Virus record (IMG/VR): IMGVR_UViG_3300046616_000397
Span: 1 to 23,901 of that record
Strand: one strand, 5' to 3'
From: a virus
Length of the DNA stretch: 23,901 bases
Within the stretch, counting starts at the first letter, position 1. Each line of letters opens with the position of its first letter. The translations under genes and the position numbers were made by a program. Positions 12,502 through 22,648 of the stretch are shown here, piece after piece. Below the pieces are notes generated by a model. It was given only the letters and a program-made list of their open reading frames with translations. It did no database searches and was not told the DNA's origin.

Positions 12502-14685
12502 ATGGCAAGCCAGCGGGGCGGAGCCCAGCCGAACTACGACGGCGAGCAGTCACGGATCGACCGCTTGTTCCGCCGCTTTTCCTCGCGGCCGAGCGAGTCG
12601 GGCGAAGAGGCCGAGATGCGCGCCAACCGGCGCGTCGCCCAACGGAAGACGGCAGCGGCGGGCTTCACCGGCGGCGGTGCGGGCGGTCCTTCGGTGGACT
12701 TCGCCACGGTCAGGCCGCGCGACCCGCTGTTTTATTGGAGACAAAACAACCTCCCGTTCCAGTTCGACGACCCGGCGCAGATGCAGAAGATGCGGGCGTA
12801 CTGCCGACTTCTTTACATCTCGCATCCGCTGGTCGGCTCCTGCGTCGACATCTACTCGAAGTACCCGCTGCTCGGGCTGAAGATGACGTGCAAGGACGAG
12901 CGGCTCACGGAGTTCTACACGGACCACTTCCTCTCCGAGGACGGCCTGGACTACCAGAAGTTCCTGGTCAAGATGGGCCGGGAGTACTGGACCACCGGCG
13001 AGGCGTGGCCGCTGGGCACCTTCAACGAGGACCTCGGTGTCTGGGACGACGAGGAGCTGCTGAACCCCGACGACGTCGAGGTGCAGCCGAGCCCGTTCCT
13101 GCGCGAGCCCCGGTTCCTGATCCGGCTCCCGCAGAGCATGAAGGAGCTGATCCGCACCCGGCAGCCCGCCTGGGAGTACGAGAAGCTCATCACGGCGTAC
13201 CCGGAGCTGACGTACTACTCCGACGACAACGCCCTCATGCCGGTGTCGAACATCCTGCTGCGGCAGATCAAGTTCGAGGCGGACACGTTCAACCCCCGGG
13301 GCATCCCGCTGCTGTACAGAGCGATGCGTTCGCTCATGCAGGAAGAGATGTTGAACGCGGCCGTCGACTCCATCGCCGACAGGCTGTACACCCCGCTCAT
13401 CCACGCCAAGCTCGGCGCGTCTGCGTCCGACCTCGGCACGAACGTGCCGTGGATCCCGACCATGGACGACCTCGCCGACTTCGAGGAGGCCGTGGACGCG
13501 GCCCTCGCGGGCGACTTCCGCATCATCATGACCCACTTCGCGGTCCAGATGGAGTCGGTGCTGGGCAAGGAGGACATCCCCGACCTGACCGGCGACTTCG
13601 ACCGGATCGAGGGCCGGGTCCTGCAGACCTTCGGCCTGTCCAAGACCATGCTCGCCGGTGCGTCCTCCGGTGAGACGTACGCGGCCGACGCCCTCAACCG
13701 CGACCTGGTCACGCAGATGCTGACCAACTACCAGAACCTCATCTCCTCCCACTACCGCCAGCGGGCCCTCGTCGTCGCCGAGGCCCAGGAGCACTTCGAC
13801 TACGAAGAGCGCAACGGCAAGCGGTACGTGAAGATGGAGGAGATCTACGAGATCGACGAGGAGACCGGCGAGGGCCGGATCGTCGAGCAGCCGAAGCTGC
13901 TGATCCCCGACCTGCAGTTCAAGACCATGAGCTTGCAGGACGAGGCCGCGCAGAACGAGTTCTTCGAGGCCCTGCGCGAGGCCGGGGTGCCGATCAGCAT
14001 GAAGACCCGGCTGCACAACATCAACATCGACTTCGACGAGGAGATCGAGAAGTCGCGCGACGAGGCCGTCGAGATGGCGGTGGCCGAGCAGGAGACCCGC
14101 AAGGCCATCTATGTCGCGCTCAAGGACAAGGGCCTGCCCATCGGCCAGGACCTGCGCTCCGACTTCGAGCCGCGCGCCCTGGACGAGTCCCAGGACCCCA
14201 GTGCGATGCCGACCGCGCCGTCGCGGATCCCGATCCTCGGCATGGACCCGGTCACCACGCAGCCCACGCTCGCGCCGACCATGCAGGACCTGACCTCGAC
14301 GCCGCCGGACGGCGGGGTCGCCGAGCCCGGCATGGAGCCGGAGCCGGTCGACGGCAGCCAGGGCGGCGCAGAGCAGCGCCCCGACGAGTCCGACGAGGCG
14401 CGCGGTGACATGCCCAAGCAGTCCTCGCTGATCCCGTACCCCCGGCCGCGCCTGGACGACGTGGTGGGTCTGTTCCAGAACCACGAGCGGATGAAGGCCC
14501 TGGCCGACGAGCACCAGCCCAAGGTCAAGGTGCCGGTCAAGCCGGTCGTCGAGGACGACGCCGAGGTTCCGGTCCCCGAGGCGATCGAGCGCAAGCAGGC
14601 CGTCGGCCTTTACCAGGGTCCGCGCCACCTCGGCATGCGCCGCCACATCACGGAGGCCGACATCAACATGGAGCTGCAGGTATGA
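12502..14685 (+). CDS. phage portal protein
   Basis: Forms the ring at the capsid vertex through which DNA is packaged. AGGAGG precedes the ATG by 4 nt. At 727 aa it is longer than typical siphophage portals (about 450-550) but fits larger actinophages. The call rests on the overall portal pattern: an N-terminal region with SHPLVGSCVDIYSKYPLLGL (about 109-128), GREYWTTGEAWPLGTF (about 159-174), long beta/alpha core, PRGIPLLYRAMRSLMQEEMLN, LTGDFDRIEGRVLQTFGLSKTMLAG and SGETYAADALNRDLVTQMLTNYQ (about 390-415). The last 180 residues are an extended Pro/acidic tail. The next gene's ATG overlaps its stop. An AT-rich codon patch at 12728-12748 is unlike the rest of the gene. Confidence 0.85.
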   Translation: MASQRGGAQPNYDGEQSRIDRLFRRFSSRPSESGEEAEMRANRRVAQRKTAAAGFTGGGAGGPSVDFATVRPRDPLFYWRQNNLPFQFDDPAQMQKMRAYCRLLYISHPLVGSCVDIYSKYPLLGLKMTCKDERLTEFYTDHFLSEDGLDYQKFLVKMGREYWTTGEAWPLGTFNEDLGVWDDEELLNPDDVEVQPSPFLREPRFLIRLPQSMKELIRTRQPAWEYEKLITAYPELTYYSDDNALMPVSNILLRQIKFEADTFNPRGIPLLYRAMRSLMQEEMLNAAVDSIADRLYTPLIHAKLGASASDLGTNVPWIPTMDDLADFEEAVDAALAGDFRIIMTHFAVQMESVLGKEDIPDLTGDFDRIEGRVLQTFGLSKTMLAGASSGETYAADALNRDLVTQMLTNYQNLISSHYRQRALVVAEAQEHFDYEERNGKRYVKMEEIYEIDEETGEGRIVEQPKLLIPDLQFKTMSLQDEAAQNEFFEALREAGVPISMKTRLHNINIDFDEEIEKSRDEAVEMAVAEQETRKAIYVALKDKGLPIGQDLRSDFEPRALDESQDPSAMPTAPSRIPILGMDPVTTQPTLAPTMQDLTSTPPDGGVAEPGMEPEPVDGSQGGAEQRPDESDEARGDMPKQSSLIPYPRPRLDDVVGLFQNHERMKALADEHQPKVKVPVKPVVEDDAEVPVPEAIERKQAVGLYQGPRHLGMRRHITEADINMELQV

Positions 14686-17600
14686 CATTCACGCTGGTTC
14701 CTGTCACGCGGACCTACACGGACGGCTCGGGCAATCCCCGCAGTGGAACGGTTCGGCTGCAGCTCGTCGGCGTGCTCACCAACAGCGGGGAGATCGCCGA
14801 CCGGCGGCCGTACACGGCCACGCTCGACTCCCTGGGGAAGATATCCCTGAGCGTCCAGGCCACCAACGACCCCGACACGCTTCCGGTGGGCGGCGGCACC
14901 TACGAGGTGACCGAGACGCTGTCCGGGCTGGCCACGGCCACCTACTTCATCGCCGTGCCGTACGACGGCGGGACGGTCGACCTGGCCACCGCGCCCCGGC
15001 TGGCCGAGGCCCTCGCGCCGGGCATCTTCTTCCAGCCCGTCAACACGCGTGGCCTGCCCAACGGGTACGCGGGCCTGGACGGCTCCGGCCGCGTCCCCCT
15101 GGACCAGCTGCCTGCCAACCTTGGCACCGGCGGCGGGAGCGCCACGCCGATCAGCGGTGACAACACCGATATCCAGGCCCTGGGTACCCGGGCGGCCGGG
15201 GCCAGCGGCAAGGCGGCCGACGCCCAGCACGTCCACCAGATGCCGCTGCTGCACCAGGTGGGACTGCCGACGGCCAGCATCCCCCTGAACGGCCAGCGCA
15301 TCACCGGCGCGGCCGACGGCGTGAACCCGCAGGACTACGCCACCGTGGCCCAGCTCGGCGGCTCCGCGCTGGCCTGGTACAACGTCAAGGACAAGCTCTA
15401 CGGCGCCAAGGGCGACGGCGCCACCGACGACCGGGCCGCGATCCAGGCCGCGATCGACGCCTGCCCCTCCGGCGGCATCGTCTACTTCCCGGCGGGTGTC
15501 TACCGCACCTCGGCCACCCTGAAGCCGAAGCCGGGCGTGGTCCTGCAGGGCGTGCACGCCAGCCTGATGTCCGGACCGGGCCTGACCGACCCGCCGTCCT
15601 ACATCCAGCCGCTGGCCTCCTTCACGGGCACCGCGCTGCTGACCTACCAGGACCAGACCACCGGCGGCTACTCCAGTCTGGCGGCCGAGCACCGGCTGCA
15701 GGACATCATGCTCGACGGCTCGACGCTGGACGGCACCAAGCCGGTCGACGGCATCTACGCCGCAGGGAACGTCCAGAACCTCGTCATGCGCAACGTGACG
15801 ATCCGGAAGATGTCCAACAACGGCATCGTCACCGCCGGGGTCAGCAACGTCTTCCCGTACTCCTGGCGTCTGCACTCGGTCATGGTCGACAACTGCCGTG
15901 GCAACGGCATGCTGCTCAACCGCATGACCGACATCACCCTGGACGACTGCCAGGTCATCGGCTGCTGGGCGACCGGCTTCATCCTCAACAACATCGCCAA
16001 CTCCACCCTCCTGGGCTGCCGCTCGGAGTGGAACGGCAACTACGGCTACTACATCACCGGCTCCTGGGGCAACGGCGCGGGCTCCGGCGGCGCCGTCATG
16101 TCCGCCTGCAGCACGGACCGCAACGGCTGGGACGGCGTGCGCGTGGACGCCACCGGCAACGGCCCGCTGACCATCGGAGAGCTGGTCACCCGCCGCGACG
16201 GCCGCAACGGCGGCTCCGGCGGCGCGAACTACGCGGGCCTGTCCCTGGTCGGCTCCACCATGCCGGTCGTAGTCAGCGGACTGACCTGCTACCCGGGCGT
16301 GGACGACAACGGCAGCGGCACCAACTCACCCCAGTACGGCGTCCGCCTGTCCGGCGCCTCCAACGTCCAGCTCGACATCGCCTACCTCCACGCCGACGCG
16401 CAGGGCCTGTACGACGACGGCACCAACACGGCCGTCACGATCGGCGCCACCGTCACCACGGCGACCGGCCCAACCACTGCGCCGGTGCGCGCGACGCGGC
16501 CCTCGCTCGCGGTGGACTGGCTGAACGTCAAGAAGTACAACGCCAAGGGCGACGGCGTCACCGACGACGCCCCGGCGATCCAGGCCGCCATCAACGCCGC
16601 CAGCGCGGCCGGGGGTGGCACGCTGTACTTCCCGGCGGGCCGCTACATCCTGAACGCCGCGCTCACCTGGGCCAGCGGCGTCAACGCGATCGGCGCGGGC
16701 GCCCGCGTGTCCATCCTGCAGTCGACCAACCAGACCCTGGACTGCATCACCGGCACCGACATCAGCGGCGTCACCCTGCAGGCGCTGCAGCTGTCCGGCC
16801 CCGGGCGCGGCTACGGCTCCGGCGTGCGCTTCACCCGCTTCTCCGCGCCGTCGACCGCGAACATCAGCCTGCGGGACATGCTCATCCAGAGCTTTGGCGG
16901 CGACGGTGTCTTCTGCCACGAGCTGGCTTCCAGCACGCTGCACCGCGTGCGGGTGCGGACCTGTGGCGGCCTCGGCTTCCACCTGCGCTCTCCGCAGGAC
17001 ACCGTCCTGGGCGGTACCTCGACGTCGCTGATCTCGTGCTCCGCCGAAGGCAACGTCACCGGCGGCTTCTGGCTCGACGGCATGGCCTACACGACCCTGA
17101 ATGCCTGCTCCGCCTCCAACACTCCGGCCGGGTACCGGCTGGACAACTGCCTGGCCGTCAACATCACCGGCTCCGGCGCCGAGCAGTGCACCACCGGCCT
17201 GATCATCTACGGCGGCAACGGCACGGTCGTCAACGGCTTCTACACCGAGGCGTCCGACGGTACGAGCGTCTGGCTCACCAACGCGACCTCCGGCGCGATC
17301 CTCAGCGGCATCGTGGAGGCGTCGCCCGGCTCGGGCGCCACCACCTGCCTCAGGGCGGACGCGGGCACGTACGGCACCGCGCTGGGCCTGATCGCGGTCA
17401 AGCCGAACGCCCTGAACGGCACCGTCAACCTCCTCGGCCAGGGCGACGGCTCCGTCACGCTGGCCGGGCGCACCGTGGTGCCCGCGACCGGCACTGGCGC
17501 CCGTATGGGCACGGTCGTCCTCGTCGGCGGCACGGCCACCGTGAACACCACGGCGATCGGGGCGGGCAGCGTCGTCATGCTGACCACCCAGGCCCCGGGC

Positions 17601-17717
17601 GGCACGGTCGGCACCCCGTACGTCTCCGCGCGGACGGCGGGCACCTCGTTCGCCGTCACCTCAACGTCGGCCAGCGACACCTCGACGGTCGGCTGGCGCA
17701 TCCTCGACCCGTCCTGA
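14682..17717 (+). CDS. tail fibre/spike with two pectate-lyase-like beta-helix domains, 1011 aa
   Basis: Likely host-receptor binding or polysaccharide-cleaving tail protein. ATG overlaps the portal stop (ATGA). Residues 1-120 form a beta-rich attachment domain (TYTDGSGNPRSGTVRLQL). Residues 120-228 carry phage-fibre motifs (GLDGSGRVPLDQLPA, AADAQHVH, DYATVAQLG). Two copies of the pectate_lyase_3 opening motif follow: YNVKDKLYGAKGDGATDD...YFPAGVY (233-274) and LNVKKYNAKGDGVTDD...YFPAGRY (about 612-655), each starting a right-handed beta-helix with many repeated short coils. The last ~75 residues (MGTVVLVGGTATVNT...GTPYVSARTAGTSFAVTSTSASDTS) resemble a terminal domain common in actinophage fibres. 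Two full helix domains in one chain is unusual. Catalytic residues cannot be assigned by eye. Confidence 0.85.
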   Translation: MTFTLVPVTRTYTDGSGNPRSGTVRLQLVGVLTNSGEIADRRPYTATLDSLGKISLSVQATNDPDTLPVGGGTYEVTETLSGLATATYFIAVPYDGGTVDLATAPRLAEALAPGIFFQPVNTRGLPNGYAGLDGSGRVPLDQLPANLGTGGGSATPISGDNTDIQALGTRAAGASGKAADAQHVHQMPLLHQVGLPTASIPLNGQRITGAADGVNPQDYATVAQLGGSALAWYNVKDKLYGAKGDGATDDRAAIQAAIDACPSGGIVYFPAGVYRTSATLKPKPGVVLQGVHASLMSGPGLTDPPSYIQPLASFTGTALLTYQDQTTGGYSSLAAEHRLQDIMLDGSTLDGTKPVDGIYAAGNVQNLVMRNVTIRKMSNNGIVTAGVSNVFPYSWRLHSVMVDNCRGNGMLLNRMTDITLDDCQVIGCWATGFILNNIANSTLLGCRSEWNGNYGYYITGSWGNGAGSGGAVMSACSTDRNGWDGVRVDATGNGPLTIGELVTRRDGRNGGSGGANYAGLSLVGSTMPVVVSGLTCYPGVDDNGSGTNSPQYGVRLSGASNVQLDIAYLHADAQGLYDDGTNTAVTIGATVTTATGPTTAPVRATRPSLAVDWLNVKKYNAKGDGVTDDAPAIQAAINAASAAGGGTLYFPAGRYILNAALTWASGVNAIGAGARVSILQSTNQTLDCITGTDISGVTLQALQLSGPGRGYGSGVRFTRFSAPSTANISLRDMLIQSFGGDGVFCHELASSTLHRVRVRTCGGLGFHLRSPQDTVLGGTSTSLISCSAEGNVTGGFWLDGMAYTTLNACSASNTPAGYRLDNCLAVNITGSGAEQCTTGLIIYGGNGTVVNGFYTEASDGTSVWLTNATSGAILSGIVEASPGSGATTCLRADAGTYGTALGLIAVKPNALNGTVNLLGQGDGSVTLAGRTVVPATGTGARMGTVVLVGGTATVNTTAIGAGSVVMLTTQAPGGTVGTPYVSARTAGTSFAVTSTSASDTSTVGWRILDPS

Positions 17718-17731
17718 CCCCTGGAGCCCCC

Positions 17732-18529
17732 GTGGTAGCCGCAATCGCGCCCCAGACGCTGTTCGAACTCGGGCAGCAGGAAGCCGCCATCAAGTACCAG
17801 GAGGACTATGTCTCCAACACCTGGTCGAACCTGAACAAGTACGCCAAGGAGACGCCCGGGATGGCCGGGTACGACGGCCAGTCCTGGTGCGTCATCTTCC
17901 TGCTGTGGCTGGCCTACCGGGCCGGTGATGTCGGCATCATCCCCAACAGCCCCGACTGCCTGCAGGTCATCAACACCTACCAGTCCTGGAACCGGTGGAG
18001 CTGGTACCCGGCGGTCGGCGCGCAGGTCATGCTGGGCACCAACGGCGGTGACCACACCGGTCTGGTGTACGCCTACAACTCCACTCAGATCTGGACGATA
18101 GAAGGCAATTCAAACACCACTGGTGCGGCCGAGGGCGACGGCGTCTACCTGCGGGTGCGCAACCGCTCCGACACCAACGTCTACGGCTACGGCTACCCGA
18201 AGTACTGCAGCCCGATGGTGACCGCCGACCCGGGCTGGGTCGACGACGGCACCCTGCTCAAGACGTCCTCCGGCACGGCGGCGGCCTACGCGCCATACCC
18301 GGGCGCCGACTGGTTCGACATCGGCCGGACGTCACCGCTCGTCCTGGCTGCAGCCCAGCGCCTGGTCGCGGTCGGCGCAGGCAGCTACACCCCGACCGCC
18401 GACATCGGCTCCGGCGACCTCACCGCGTGGGGCAACTGGCACGTGACGTGCGGCTCTCCGGGCGGCGCGTACACCGGCGTGCCCAATGAGACCATCTGGC
18501 GGGCCCTGCAGGTACCTCACAGCCACTGA
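17732..18529 (+). CDS. CHAP-like cell-wall hydrolase, 265 aa
   Basis: Likely cysteine peptidase/amidase acting on peptidoglycan, as lysin or tail-associated hydrolase. GTG start with GGAG 5 nt upstream, 14 bases after the fibre gene's stop. CHAP features: GQSWCVIF (nucleophile Cys53), GGDHTGLV (His108) and IEGNS (Glu124/Asn126), in the expected order. Residues 192-262 (TSPLVLAAAQRLVAVG...GNWHVTCGSPGGAYTGVPNETIWRALQ) look like a C-terminal peptidoglycan-binding-type domain. No signal peptide. Its place behind the fibre and in the same coupled cluster argues for a virion-associated role, with the separate endolysin next door. An AT-rich patch covers the catalytic IEGNS codons. Confidence 0.78.
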   Translation: MVAAIAPQTLFELGQQEAAIKYQEDYVSNTWSNLNKYAKETPGMAGYDGQSWCVIFLLWLAYRAGDVGIIPNSPDCLQVINTYQSWNRWSWYPAVGAQVMLGTNGGDHTGLVYAYNSTQIWTIEGNSNTTGAAEGDGVYLRVRNRSDTNVYGYGYPKYCSPMVTADPGWVDDGTLLKTSSGTAAAYAPYPGADWFDIGRTSPLVLAAAQRLVAVGAGSYTPTADIGSGDLTAWGNWHVTCGSPGGAYTGVPNETIWRALQVPHSH

Positions 18530-18532
18530 TTG

Positions 18533-18567
18533 CTGTCTCGGTCGCGGGTTCCGGCCCAAGGGGTGAG
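18533..18567 (+). promoter_or_regulatory. bipartite late element, copy E
   Basis: CTGTCT (18533-18538), a 19-nt spacer and AAGGGGTGAG (18558-18567), four bases after the upstream stop and 36 nt before the GTG start. A perfect 14-bp palindrome GGTGAGATCTCACC covers 18562-18575. The upstream arm GTCTCGGTCGCGGGTTCC (18535-18552) pairs with 18587-18604 across the RBS end, start codon and first codons (see the separate hairpin feature). Confidence 0.65.
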
Positions 18568-18605
18568 ATCTCACCACCCTCCGGGAGGAACCCGTGACCG
18601 AGACA
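18534..18605 (+). repeat. 19-bp inverted repeat enclosing an endolysin start codon
   Basis: Bases 18534-18552 can pair with 18587-18605 over 19 positions, 18 Watson-Crick and one G-U, in RNA. The loop of 34 nt holds AAGGGGTGAG and part of the GGGAGG ribosome binding site (18583-18588). The right arm contains the GTG start (18594-18596), so in this fold translation initiation would be hidden. Confidence 0.75.
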
Positions 18606-19469
18606 ACCCCCGACTGGCGCCGCCTCGTCGACCACGTCCAGTCCATACCCGAGAAGATCTACGAGACCTGGAACAGCCGCGACGGCTGGGACAACCACAC
18701 CATCTTCGGCAAGGAGTATGGGTGGGACGGGGTCGCCTGGTGCGCGATCTTCGACTGGGACATGTACCACGACGTCCAGCTCGACGCGATCGTCCCCAAG
18801 ACGGCGTCCGTCGCGGGCATGACCGCCTGGGCCAAGCAGAAGGGCCAGTGGAGCGAGTACCCGAGCGTCGGCGCCTGGGTCAACTTCTCCAACGGCGGCC
18901 ACACGGAGCTGGTGGTCGGCTTCGACGAGACGTGGGTGTACACCAAGGGCGGCAACTCGATCCAGACCGGGTCCGAGGACAACGGGCAGGGCAACGGCGT
19001 CTGGTCCCACGTCACCGCCCGCCGCGCCACCAAGGTCGTCGGCTACTTCGCCCCGCACTTCCCCGACGGCGTCTGCCCGCCCACGGCCGACCCTGCCGAC
19101 CCGCGCGGAGGCAAGGCGGTCGCCTCCTGGCGCTGGTCGGCCCCGGTCGTCGCCAAGCCGCCGACTCCGCCCGCGCCGGGCAAGCCGACCCCGAGCACCC
19201 CGAAGTGCCCGGCCTTCCCCGGCCGTGAGTACTTCAGGCTCGGCGCAAGGAACAAGTACGCCCTGCAGCTGCAGAAGTGGCTCGACAAGGGCAACTGGGG
19301 CCCGGAGTACGTCGTCGGCCCGTCCGAGACGATGTCATCCATCGACCTGAAGAAGGTCAAGGCACTGCAGCAGCACTACCTGTCGGCGCTCGGCCCGGCC
19401 GACGGCCTGTGCGGCCCGAAGACCTGGCAGTACGCCTTCGAGGTCGCCAACGGTCTGCGCAAGAAGTAA
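18594..19469 (+). CDS. CHAP endolysin with C-terminal peptidoglycan-binding domain, 291 aa
   Basis: Likely the phage endolysin. GTG start with GGGAGG 5 nt upstream. CHAP domain (about 20-155): YGWDGVAWCAIF (Cys50), SNGGHTELVVGF (His103) and KGGNS (Asn121). A proline-rich linker (about 184-206) leads to a peptidoglycan-binding-type domain at 212-285 (YALQLQKWLDKGNW...DLKKVKALQQHY...ADGLCGPKTWQYAF), the usual endolysin architecture. The catalytic part is paralogous in pattern to the upstream CHAP protein. No signal peptide, so release needs a holin or similar. The start codon lies within the 19-bp inverted repeat, which may time its synthesis. A strong terminator follows. Confidence 0.87.
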   Translation: MTETTPDWRRLVDHVQSIPEKIYETWNSRDGWDNHTIFGKEYGWDGVAWCAIFDWDMYHDVQLDAIVPKTASVAGMTAWAKQKGQWSEYPSVGAWVNFSNGGHTELVVGFDETWVYTKGGNSIQTGSEDNGQGNGVWSHVTARRATKVVGYFAPHFPDGVCPPTADPADPRGGKAVASWRWSAPVVAKPPTPPAPGKPTPSTPKCPAFPGREYFRLGARNKYALQLQKWLDKGNWGPEYVVGPSETMSSIDLKKVKALQQHYLSALGPADGLCGPKTWQYAFEVANGLRKK

Positions 19470-19980: not shown

Positions 19981-20006
19981 GGTTTCGGTCGTTGAGGGAG
20001 GCGCCG

Positions 20007-22226
20007 GTGGGCGGCAAGTTCGAGCGCAGCGAGCGCCTGGAGCACCAGACCCTGGGCGTGCAGCGTCTCGCGGTGCGCTCCGAGGACTACTGGGAGTACA
20101 AGCCCGAGCAGCGGGTACAGACGATCGACGGTGTCACCGGCGTCGTCAAGCACGTCGAGGACGGCCCCTTCCCCGGCTCCGAGGAGTACGAGGTCGTGCT
20201 GGACCGAGGTCTGGGTGGCGGCCGGTACACGGCCTCCCAGCTCAGCCCGGCGCCGATCACCGCCGAGGCCATGGAGCAGACGGCGGCCGTCGACTACCCG
20301 GAGCTGTCCCAGATCCTCGTCGAGCGCCCGGACCCGGCCCGCCAGTTCGTCACGGCGGGCAAGAACCCCTTTGCCGACAGCGACAGCGACGAGCCGGATT
20401 CGGACGACTCGGAGAACGACGACGACTCCGGAGAAAACGACTCCAAGGACTCGGACGACGACTCCGACGACAAGGATGACTACGACTCCAGCGACGGCGA
20501 CGACGACGCGCCGCCGTGGGCCAAGAAGGCGTCCGCCCTCTTCTCCGACCTGGTCGTGACGGCCGCCGCTGACACCGACTTCCGCTTCCACATCACGGCC
20601 GCCTGGCGCGACGTGGTGGCCAAGGCCAAGCGGATCCGCTCCGAGGGCCGCCTGCGCGTCACCCTCGCCTCCGACGGCCTGGTCTACGCCGAGGTCAAGG
20701 GCGACCACCACGTCTACGAGACCGGCCTGCAGCGCATGCCGGGCAAGGTGGCCGCGCACTCTTGGTCCTGCGGCTGCAAGTGGGGCGCCTACCACTGGGG
20801 CGCCGACGACGACTTCAGCCGGTTCGCCGGGCGCATGTGCTCCCACGCGCTGGCCCTGCAGTACGAGGCCCAGTCGAGGGGCATGTTCGGCCGCGACGTC
20901 AACGCCGACGAGCACAAGCCCACCTGGGTACCCCGCCATGTCGTCGTCCGCTACGACATCGACGCCGACACCAACCGGCTCGCCCCGGCGACCGCTCGCA
21001 AGCTCTCCTCGTGGGACGCCCCCGAGCCGTCCATGTGGGACATGGACGCCGAAGAACACGGCGACCACGACTACTTTGCGGAGAAGCAGCGGAAGTCGAA
21101 CGAGTGGGACAGCATCCACGAAGGTCTTGGCGATATCCACCGGGGCGTCAACGTCCATCTGCGCCCCGAGGATCACGCGATCGTCCACGACGAGTCCCGC
21201 CCGATGCACGAGCGCGCCCAGCACCTGATGAAGTCACTCCCGCACAGCGACCTGGCCCGGGGCAGTGAGGGCCTGGGACGCCACTGGACGGACAACCACG
21301 GCGTGGCCGAGTCCTTCGGCGAGATGGACGATCGCCCGAACCGGCACGGCACTCACCCCACGTCGGTCGTCTTCCACGCGGAGAAGCCTGACCGGCACGC
21401 GATCGACGAGGACCCGGACCAGTCCGACGGAATGATCTACGGCTACCACGACCACGGCGAGAGTGAGATCCCGCTCCACCCTGGGGCCGGGGTGCACCTC
21501 AAGGGCGTCTCTTGGAAGAACATGAACACGCCCGACGAGGACTTCCGGACGTTCAAGGGCGACGGCCTCTTCGACCACCTCTGGGAGCACCAGCGTCACG
21601 ACTTTCCCGGCGGCCATGCCGCTCACGCTTCCCTGCAGCAGGCGCCCATGTCGGTCGTCGCCCGTGCGACCGTGGTCGCCGGTGAGGACCAGGAGGAGCT
21701 GCTGCTGGCCTTGAGCGTGGCGGGCATCCGGCCGCTGGCCAATGCCGACGCGCCGTTCGGGGAGCCGTCGGGGACGTCGTACCTGCTGCCCAAGGCGCCG
21801 GGAGCCACGGCGCCGAAGAGGCCCTGGGAGAACCCGGCGTCGGCCGGACCGCTCGCGGGCGGGGACCCGGCGGGCTGGAACCGGCAGCTGCCGCTGCAGT
21901 CGTACGCCCACGGGGGTCTGGAGGCGGCGCTGTTCGAGCCCGGCGGCACGGAGGCGGAGCTGCACGACGAGCCGGAGGGTGCGCTGCCCTCGACGGACGG
22001 GGCGGTGCCGACGGATGAGGCGTCGGACCTGACGCCGTCGATGACGGCGGGCCTCAAGCGGCAGGCGCTGAAGGACTTCTCTCTCGCTGAGCAGCAGGCG
22101 CTGATCAACGAGGGTGAGGGGGTGCGGGCGGCGAACCTCGACCGCCTGGACATCAAGGGGACCCACTACGCCGACCTGGAGCACGTCCTGGCGGCACAGG
22201 AGGATGACACCACATGGCTGGACTGA
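20007..22226 (+). CDS. SWIM zinc-motif and predicted ADP-ribosyltransferase protein, 739 aa
   Basis: The GTG giving MGGKFERSER is chosen because GAGGGAGG lies 5 nt upstream; longer frames start inside the leader element. Residues 35-80 look like a small beta-barrel (VTGVVKHVEDGPFPGSEEYEVVLDRG). Residues 124-167 are an Asp/Ser-rich acidic linker. Residues 250-285 hold SWSCGCKWG...GRMCSHAL, a SWIM-type CxC...CxH site (Cys255, Cys257, Cys278, His280). Residues 370-505 match the R-S-E ADP-ribosyltransferase plan: HRGV (Arg379), GLGRHWTDN (422-430) and GESEIPLHPGAGVHL (Glu485-x-Glu487). HASLQ (540-544) recurs in other late proteins, and the C-terminal 200 residues are unassigned. It may be packaged and modify host proteins, as T4 Alt does; that role is inference. 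Confidence 0.72.
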   Translation: MGGKFERSERLEHQTLGVQRLAVRSEDYWEYKPEQRVQTIDGVTGVVKHVEDGPFPGSEEYEVVLDRGLGGGRYTASQLSPAPITAEAMEQTAAVDYPELSQILVERPDPARQFVTAGKNPFADSDSDEPDSDDSENDDDSGENDSKDSDDDSDDKDDYDSSDGDDDAPPWAKKASALFSDLVVTAAADTDFRFHITAAWRDVVAKAKRIRSEGRLRVTLASDGLVYAEVKGDHHVYETGLQRMPGKVAAHSWSCGCKWGAYHWGADDDFSRFAGRMCSHALALQYEAQSRGMFGRDVNADEHKPTWVPRHVVVRYDIDADTNRLAPATARKLSSWDAPEPSMWDMDAEEHGDHDYFAEKQRKSNEWDSIHEGLGDIHRGVNVHLRPEDHAIVHDESRPMHERAQHLMKSLPHSDLARGSEGLGRHWTDNHGVAESFGEMDDRPNRHGTHPTSVVFHAEKPDRHAIDEDPDQSDGMIYGYHDHGESEIPLHPGAGVHLKGVSWKNMNTPDEDFRTFKGDGLFDHLWEHQRHDFPGGHAAHASLQQAPMSVVARATVVAGEDQEELLLALSVAGIRPLANADAPFGEPSGTSYLLPKAPGATAPKRPWENPASAGPLAGGDPAGWNRQLPLQSYAHGGLEAALFEPGGTEAELHDEPEGALPSTDGAVPTDEASDLTPSMTAGLKRQALKDFSLAEQQALINEGEGVRAANLDRLDIKGTHYADLEHVLAAQEDDTTWLD

Positions 22227-22648
22227 TGGACGACGTGGCCGAGCCGATCCCCGCTGAGACGGCGGCCGACGGCAGCGACCCGAAGTGCCCCTTCCGAGGA
22301 GACAGCCAGCGCTTCACCTGGCCCCGTGACCTGCAGATCGGCCAGCTGCAGGACGAGGTCACCGAGGCGCTCGGCCCGGACGTCCGGCTCGCGGCCTTCT
22401 TCCCGCTCGACGACGAGGGCGAGCCGGTCCCGGTCGGCGCGCAGACCCCGATCACGCTGTACGTCACGCCGTCCTCGGCGGACCTGGCGGCCGTGAAGCA
22501 GGTGCTGGCCACGCACAGGCCGGACCCGTACTACGGCATGACGGACGAGCAGAAGACGCAGGCGCAGCTGCGGGAGAAGATCGCTTCGGGCCAGCCGCTG
22601 ACTCCGGAGGAGACGACGGCGGCCCTGCAGATGCTGCTCACTGGATGA
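22214..22648 (+). CDS. unknown late protein, 144 aa
   Basis: The ATG lies within the end of the upstream gene (13-base overlap), with AGGAGG 10 nt before it, so the two are coupled. An N-terminal 25 residues are acidic/disordered. Residues 30-90 look like a small mixed domain (FTWPRDLQIGQLQDEVTEALGPDVRLAAFFPLDDEGEPV), and 105-143 are helical, with EQKTQAQLREKIASGQPLTPEETTAALQMLL. No family recognised. It is the last plus-strand gene before the bidirectional terminator and may partner the ADP-ribosyltransferase protein. Confidence 0.72.
   Translation: MAGLMDDVAEPIPAETAADGSDPKCPFRGDSQRFTWPRDLQIGQLQDEVTEALGPDVRLAAFFPLDDEGEPVPVGAQTPITLYVTPSSADLAAVKQVLATHRPDPYYGMTDEQKTQAQLREKIASGQPLTPEETTAALQMLLTG

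What the first reader, a model, noticed from the sequence alone, without database searches (positions are those of the whole stretch)
20007..22226. SWIM zinc motif fused to a predicted arginine-type ADP-ribosyltransferase in a late phage protein
One protein combines a small N-terminal barrel, a long acidic linker, a CxC...CxH SWIM site and an R...(W)T...ExE set (Arg379, 426-428, Glu485/Glu487) of the R-S-E ADP-ribosyltransferase class. Late expression suggests packaging in the virion and possible injection, as with T4 Alt. The SWIM domain may direct it to DNA or to a protein. I know of no described phage effector with this combination.
Basis: partly seen in the sequence, partly recalled or inferred. 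Interest (0 to 1): 0.7.

Follow-up and report, generated by a model that had tools for sequence, protein, structure and literature searches.

The report
Phage head-module SWIM protein carrying ADP-ribosyltransferase
A large Streptomyces phage has, among its capsid genes, a conserved zinc-motif protein with slots that hold interchangeable enzyme domains, here a predicted ADP-ribosyltransferase probably packed in the virus and delivered into the bacterium, and cultured mycobacteriophages have the same carrier protein, so the idea can be tested.

Summary
Window 20007-22226 (+, GTG start, good ribosome site) encodes 739 aa: SH3/Tudor-like barrel, acidic linker, SWIM motif (C255xC257...C278xH280), then a predicted R-S/T-E ADP-ribosyltransferase (ART; R379, T428, E485/E487). 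The ART model is confident (pLDDT 82); all 50 entries listed by the structural aligner are ART or ART-like, at modest Z (at most 5.9). R379, S/T428 and E487 are invariant in 24 related modules. The protein belongs to a family of large actinophages (Bxz1 group, Myrna, E3, Skog, Finch) encoded between the portal and the capsid protease/major capsid genes. Barrel, SWIM domain and C-terminal tail are fixed. The ART is a cassette (20996-21737) with sharp DNA borders; relatives carry it in another slot, in both, before the SWIM domain, or not at all, and others carry Arr-like ART, GNAT, Nudix, 2H or LysM domains. Best reading: a head-module effector carrier, working like T4 Alt and polyvalent proteins but on a SWIM protein rather than MuF. 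Catalysis, packaging and injection are inferred, not shown. Arginine specificity is plausible for this module only: position -2 is D, Q, S or N in many siblings.

The parts
20007..22226 (+). CDS, SWIM carrier protein with ART cassette, 739 aa, GTG start
   Evidence: SD GAGGGAGG at 19994-20001; full-length relatives
20094..20252 (+). SH3/Tudor/KOW-like N-terminal barrel, residues 30-82
   Evidence: AF2 model pLDDT about 88; VIA-align Z 7-8.5 to Tudor/KOW/chromo barrels
20370..20510 (+). acidic D/E/S-rich linker, residues about 122-168
   Evidence: sequence; pLDDT mostly under 50
20565..20894 (+). conserved helical + SWIM domain, residues 187-296
   Evidence: Pfam SWIM matches in 3 relatives
20769..20846 (+). 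SWIM zinc motif C255xC257-x20-C278xH280
   Evidence: invariant in 10 divergent phages
20996..21737 (+). exchangeable cassette (slot 1)
   Evidence: DNA identity to L016, L014 and L015 stops at about 20995-21000 and resumes at 21738
21063..21617 (+). ART module, residues 353-537
21141..21143 (+). R379, predicted catalytic Arg (strand 1)
   Evidence: invariant in 24 modules; falls at CTA1 residue 7 / PTX S1 residue 9 by alignment ranges, if ungapped
21285..21290 (+). W427-T428, S/T motif (strand 2)
   Evidence: S/T in all 24 modules
21459..21467 (+). E485-S486-E487, ExE motif
   Evidence: E487 invariant in 24 modules; -2 position variable
22053..22169 (+). conserved C-terminal tail ending in GTHY, residues about 683-721
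   Evidence: conserved in 61 distinct tails from Streptomyces to Mycobacterium phages
12502..14685 (+). portal protein (context)
   Evidence: PHROG portal 5.5e-136
22214..22648 (+). 144-aa gene overlapping the stop of the SWIM-ART gene; unknown function (context)
   Evidence: conserved, also in ART-less L034

Best explanation
The protein is a capsid-module carrier ('chassis') of large actinobacterial myoviruses: an SH3/Tudor-like barrel, a SWIM zinc domain and a conserved C-terminal tail, with slots in which enzymatic effector domains are inserted and exchanged. In this phage the slot-1 cargo is an R-S/T-E mono-ADP-ribosyltransferase. The carrier is probably made late, assembled with the portal and capsid (perhaps trimmed by the neighbouring head protease), packaged inside the head, and delivered with the DNA into Streptomyces, where the ART transfers ADP-ribose from NAD+ to host (or phage) macromolecules early in infection, as T4 Alt does. 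Shown here: the domain content, the ART-superfamily resemblance of the model, conservation of the active-site set, head-module synteny, and cassette exchange. Inferred: NAD+ catalysis, packaging, injection. Not identified: the substrate.
For: ART module model pLDDT 82.1, pTM 0.80; all 50 entries listed by VIA-align are ART or ART-like proteins (pertussis S1, LT-IIb, Tpt1, TreX, CTA1, IcmQ, Scabin, PARP4, pierisin; Z 2.8-5.9). Alignment ranges put R379 at CTA1 residue 7 and PTX S1 residue 9 if ungapped. R, S/T and E are invariant in 24 modules. Purifying selection. Family between portal and protease/MCP in 9 cultured phages of several genera; MCPs of the window clade are about 57-61% identical to those of Finch, E3 and Skog. 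Same chassis with ART in slot 1, slot 2, both, before SWIM, or absent. Sharp DNA cassette borders. Other cargo: Arr-ms, GNAT, NUDIX, GDSL, 2H, LysM; DUF7178 and ParB-like inserts in the neighbouring head protease. Homologous ART modules in Myrna gp78, Tonenili gp097 and Phrappuccino gp195. Literature: about 44% of phage ARTs lie in contexts suggesting head packaging (PMC9503650).
Against: No virion proteomics or enzymology was found for any member. Foldseek alone gave no significant PDB hit (best E 1.1), and the VIA Z scores are modest and a re-ranking of Foldseek's own list. No significant Pfam or NCBIfam match for the window protein. Profile comparison with T4 ModA/B not significant (prob 2.9%). 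Some sibling modules have lost R and E, so ART activity is not always required.
Confidence: 0.55

Rival explanations
1. Active ART inside an assembly protein, acting in the producing cell late in infection on phage head proteins, host proteins or defence factors, and not injected.
For: Position among head genes downstream of endolysin genes; an alternative along these lines (countering immunity that targets the packaging apparatus) is raised in PMC9503650.
Against: Cargo varies (ART, GNAT, Nudix, 2H, LysM) while the chassis is fixed, which fits delivery of effectors better than one fixed late function.
Confidence: 0.25
2. The ART module is a degenerate or non-catalytic binding domain kept for structure; cassette exchange reflects drift or surface variation.
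For: Some siblings have lost R and E; Z scores to known ARTs are modest.
Against: All 24 full modules aligned here keep R, S/T and E; purifying selection; the degenerate copies are separate modules, often beside an intact one.
Confidence: 0.12
3. A superinfection-exclusion or anti-host toxin expressed from the phage genome; the SWIM domain guides it to DNA.
For: SWIM domains are described elsewhere as DNA- or protein-binding (general knowledge); related roles for some phage ARTs are discussed in PMC9503650.
Against: Head-gene synteny across several genera, most members without ART; no ART-specific partner or immunity gene found: the overlapping 144-aa gene also occurs in ART-less L034.
Confidence: 0.08

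Closest known systems
SWIM protein family of Ceeclamvirinae and relatives (Myrna gp96, ArcherS7 (Bxz1 species) gp96, E3 gp76, Skog gp157, Finch gp16, Phrappuccino gp52; PHROG 2940 / 30974)
   Same: Member by sequence: SWIM domain, C-terminal GTHY tail, position between portal and protease/MCP
   Different: These have no ART module in this protein; several carry LysM instead. Annotated 'LysM-like endolysin' or hypothetical
Phage polyvalent proteins and MuF-fused effectors (PMC5512222, PMC9503650)
   Same: Multi-domain proteins of head-gene context with ART, GNAT, 2H, ParB and Nudix domains; predicted packaging and injection
   Different: Carrier is a SWIM protein, not MuF, portal or N4-type; the ART is R-S/T-E, whereas the 2017 survey places Alt/VIP2-type R-S-E ARTs outside genuine polyvalent proteins
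T4 Alt / ModA / ModB
   Same: R-S-E type active site and ExE; Alt is packaged and injected (literature)
   Different: No significant sequence relation to ModA/ModB; Alt not compared; none is on a SWIM chassis
Myrna gp78, Tonenili gp097 and Phrappuccino gp195 ART modules
   Same: Homologous ART (hhalign prob 98.2%, E 5e-14), ExE conserved in 5 of 5
   Different: On other polypeptides; some beside GNAT or ParB-like domains or in triplicate

Membership tests
ART superfamily, R-S-E clade | ART fold (split beta sheet) | tested here: met
   AF2 model; all 50 VIA entries listed are ART or ART-like, Z up to 5.9; Foldseek alone not significant
ART superfamily, R-S-E clade | Arg in strand 1, S/T in strand 2, Glu before a late strand | tested here: met
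   R379 in E25-31, T428 in E74-76, E487 at start of E135-138 of the model; invariant in 24 modules
ART superfamily, R-S-E clade | The three residues line one NAD+ pocket | not tested
   no model coordinates available; only alignment ranges and strand positions
ART superfamily, R-S-E clade | NAD+-dependent activity | not testable with these tools
   needs enzyme assay
Arginine-specific (ExE) ARTs | Glu at -2 from the catalytic Glu | tested here: met
   E485-S-E487 in the window; but D/Q/S/N in many siblings
Arginine-specific (ExE) ARTs | Arginine is the acceptor | not testable with these tools
   substrate unknown
T4 Alt/Mod family | Significant profile similarity to ModA/ModB | tested here: not met
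   hhalign prob 2.9%, E 0.016; motifs align but not significant
T4 Alt/Mod family | Similarity to T4 Alt itself | not tested
   Alt sequence was not fetched or compared
SWIM zinc finger | CxCx(n)CxH | tested here: met
SWIM zinc finger | Recognised by Pfam SWIM PF04434 | tested here: inconclusive
   3 of 25 aligned members match (best 4.6e-5); the window protein does not
Polyvalent / head-packaged effector proteins | Several effector domain types on one head-module carrier family | tested here: met
Polyvalent / head-packaged effector proteins | Present in virions and injected | not testable with these tools
   no proteomics found in the papers searched
MuF proteins | MuF domain | tested here: inconclusive
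   no Pfam MuF match in the window protein or listed for relatives; a missed distant match is not excluded

The most novel reading that the evidence does not exclude
Large actinobacterial myoviruses, including laboratory mycobacteriophages of the Bxz1 and Myrna groups, share an unrecognised head-delivery platform: a SWIM/Tudor carrier with a conserved C-terminal docking tail and interchangeable effector slots (ART, Arr-like ART, GNAT, Nudix, 2H, LysM), exchanged as cassettes and injected at infection. Changes at the ART -2 position (E/D/Q/S/N) would mean that the phages switch ADP-ribosylation targets by swapping cassettes.
Probability: 0.45. Interest if true: 0.78.

Novelty: new variant of a known kind. 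Interest (0 to 1): 0.62.

Why it matters
It would add a carrier protein to the known phage head-delivery platforms, in phages that infect Streptomyces and Mycobacterium, and would turn a family annotated 'LysM-like endolysin' or hypothetical in about 200 sequenced phage records into a testable effector-delivery system. The cassette borders and the two slots show how such cargo is exchanged.

Tried and rejected
Pfam, NCBIfam and PDB sequence searches with the protein or the ART module: no useful match. Foldseek PDB on the ART model: no significant hit. hhalign against T4 ModA/ModB: motif-consistent but not significant. tblastn of the module in the phage collection: none, although profile and fold searches later found Myrna gp78 and others. 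Immunity-gene idea for the overlapping 144-aa gene: rejected, it is present in ART-less L034. The tail motif as a signal shared by other head proteins: not found in other ORFs of the loci. Promoters and terminators: none found by consensus, so 'late expression' rests on gene position only. Search for published virion proteomics of relatives: nothing found in the papers held. ART module in bacterial genomes: one locus in 84,980 species, itself a 156,949-bp contig of Streptomyces sp. MH60 of the same length as IMG/VR record 2862465376; the pattern search may miss distant relatives. A wider scan of Streptomyces genomes could not be centred.

Full report
Observation. Window 20007-22226 (+) is an open frame of 739 aa that starts at GTG, with GAGGGAGG five bases upstream. 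An N-terminal five-stranded barrel (residues 30-82, pLDDT about 88) and a low-confidence acidic linker precede the SWIM domain in the predicted model. The barrel aligns with Tudor, KOW and chromo barrels at Z 7-8.5; such small barrels match many proteins and say little about function.

What the family is. tblastn finds the SWIM region in 210 phage records, 196 of them Mycobacterium. In nine cultured phages examined (Skog, Myrna, Finch, Phrappuccino, Pupper, E3, Stormageddon, ArcherS7, Tonenili) the gene lies between the portal and the next large gene, in several annotated as capsid maturation or prohead protease, followed by the major head protein. A profile scan finds 79 IMG/VR contigs, which partly overlap the phage records; one relative is a 156,949-bp contig of Streptomyces sp. 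MH60. The window clade's portal, protease and major capsid proteins are homologous to those of Finch, E3 and Skog (MCP about 57-61% identical). Contractile-sheath matches are above the family cut-off in Myrna and Finch and weaker, below it, in three Streptomyces-type contigs.

Chassis and cargo. Nine close members align full length. Barrel, SWIM domain and C-terminal tail are conserved; the ART sits before a short helix (slot 1: window, L012, L013), after it (slot 2: L014-L017) or in both (L018, L019). Between the window and L016, L014 or L015 the DNA identity stops at about 20995-21000 and resumes at 21738, so a 742-bp cassette differs while the flanks stay 79-94% identical. An HMM of the module finds it in the SWIM protein of 21 of the 79 contigs, sometimes before the SWIM domain or in several copies; the others have none. 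Pfam and NCBIfam find other domains in the same chassis family: Arr-type ADP-ribosyltransferase, GNAT, Nudix, GDSL, 2H phosphoesterase, LysM. The downstream head gene, homologous to head maturation proteases, carries a DUF7178 domain and a stretch that reads like a ParB-type domain in L011, with the same inserts visible in L016 but not in L015. A C-terminal tail ending in GTHY is shared by 61 distinct members from Streptomyces to Mycobacterium phages. I read it as a candidate docking or targeting tail; that is inference.

Is it an ART? Twenty-four full modules keep HRG, an S/T at 428 and E487. The AF2 model of the window module has pLDDT 82.1 and pTM 0.80; R379 lies in strand 1, T428 in strand 2, and E487 at the start of a later strand. 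Foldseek alone found no significant PDB match. VIA-align, re-ranking Foldseek's list, gave Z up to 5.9, and all 50 entries shown are ART or ART-like proteins. The aligned ranges start at model 21 = CTA1 1 and model 20 = pertussis S1 2, which places R379 (model 27) at CTA1 7 and S1 9 if there is no gap; from general knowledge these are the catalytic arginines. BFVD adds significant matches to phage proteins, among them Myrna and Pupper proteins, and profile comparison links the Myrna gp78, Tonenili gp097 and Phrappuccino gp195 modules to this one (prob 98.2%, E 5e-14). Against T4 ModA/ModB the profile match is not significant, but it aligns E485/E487 with ModA E163/E165. Alt itself was not compared.

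Specificity. The residue two before the catalytic Glu is E in the window, its slot-1 relatives and the Myrna, Tonenili and Phrappuccino modules, but D, Q, S or N in many siblings. Arginine specificity is therefore a reasonable guess for this module only. Several separate copies have lost R and E.

How it probably works. Published surveys place many phage ARTs in head-gene contexts and propose packaging and injection (PMC9503650, PMC5512222). In those two papers SWIM is mentioned once, for SWI2/SNF2 ATPases, and not with ARTs. The head synteny and the interchangeable effector-like cargo fit the packaging model. I therefore favour a head-packaged, injected effector carrier whose ART acts on host macromolecules early in infection. 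Packaging, injection, catalysis and target are not shown. The main rival is an ART acting late in the producing cell.

Limits. No coordinates were available, so the R379-T428-E487 distances were not measured. No virion proteomics was found in the papers held. Many family members are metagenomic contigs, possibly fragments. The window's own record is a 23,901-base fragment.

Noticed in passing
C-terminal tails of SWIM proteins; window about 22053-22169: Universal tail F[ST]xAEQxxLIxEG..ARNLDxLDLxGTHYE in 61 distinct tails; not found in other ORFs of the fetched loci. Candidate capsid-docking or targeting tail.
   Followed up: partly
SWIM family and Finch gp12, gp13, portal and protease (L003): Tetrapeptide [KR]TA[AGS] recurs; the broader [RKHQ]TA[ASG] is enriched in the SWIM family (140 against 21.7 in shuffles), partly because of conserved chassis positions. 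Candidate prohead-protease processing site.
   Followed up: partly
L035/L036/L037/L038/L040, L039:8009-8497, L041:8406-8891, L046:5932-6435: ART module copies lacking the catalytic Arg and Glu, often beside intact copies.
   Followed up: partly
L011:15980-19480 and L016:16068-19685: Head maturation protease ORF carries inserted ParB-like and DUF7178-like segments, absent in L015.
   Followed up: partly
L127:1358-7450 (Phrappuccino gp195): 2030-aa protein with three ART modules and a kinase-like N-terminal region.
   Followed up: partly
L026:4613-12163 and L026:11971-20430: Giant multi-domain ORFs with several ART modules; one also matches Arr-type ART, GNAT and 2H families.
   Followed up: partly
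L047:1102-5805: Protein encoded upstream of the portal combines Pfam ART-PolyVal, an Arr-ms match and an R-S/T-E ART module of the window's family.
   Followed up: partly
window 16028-19469: Two neighbouring endolysin-like genes; 18594-19469 matches endolysin PHROGs; the first, about 17.7-18.5 kb, was judged from sequence only.
   Followed up: no
window 22214-22648: 144-aa gene overlapping the SWIM-ART stop, conserved also in ART-less L034; unknown function.
   Followed up: partly
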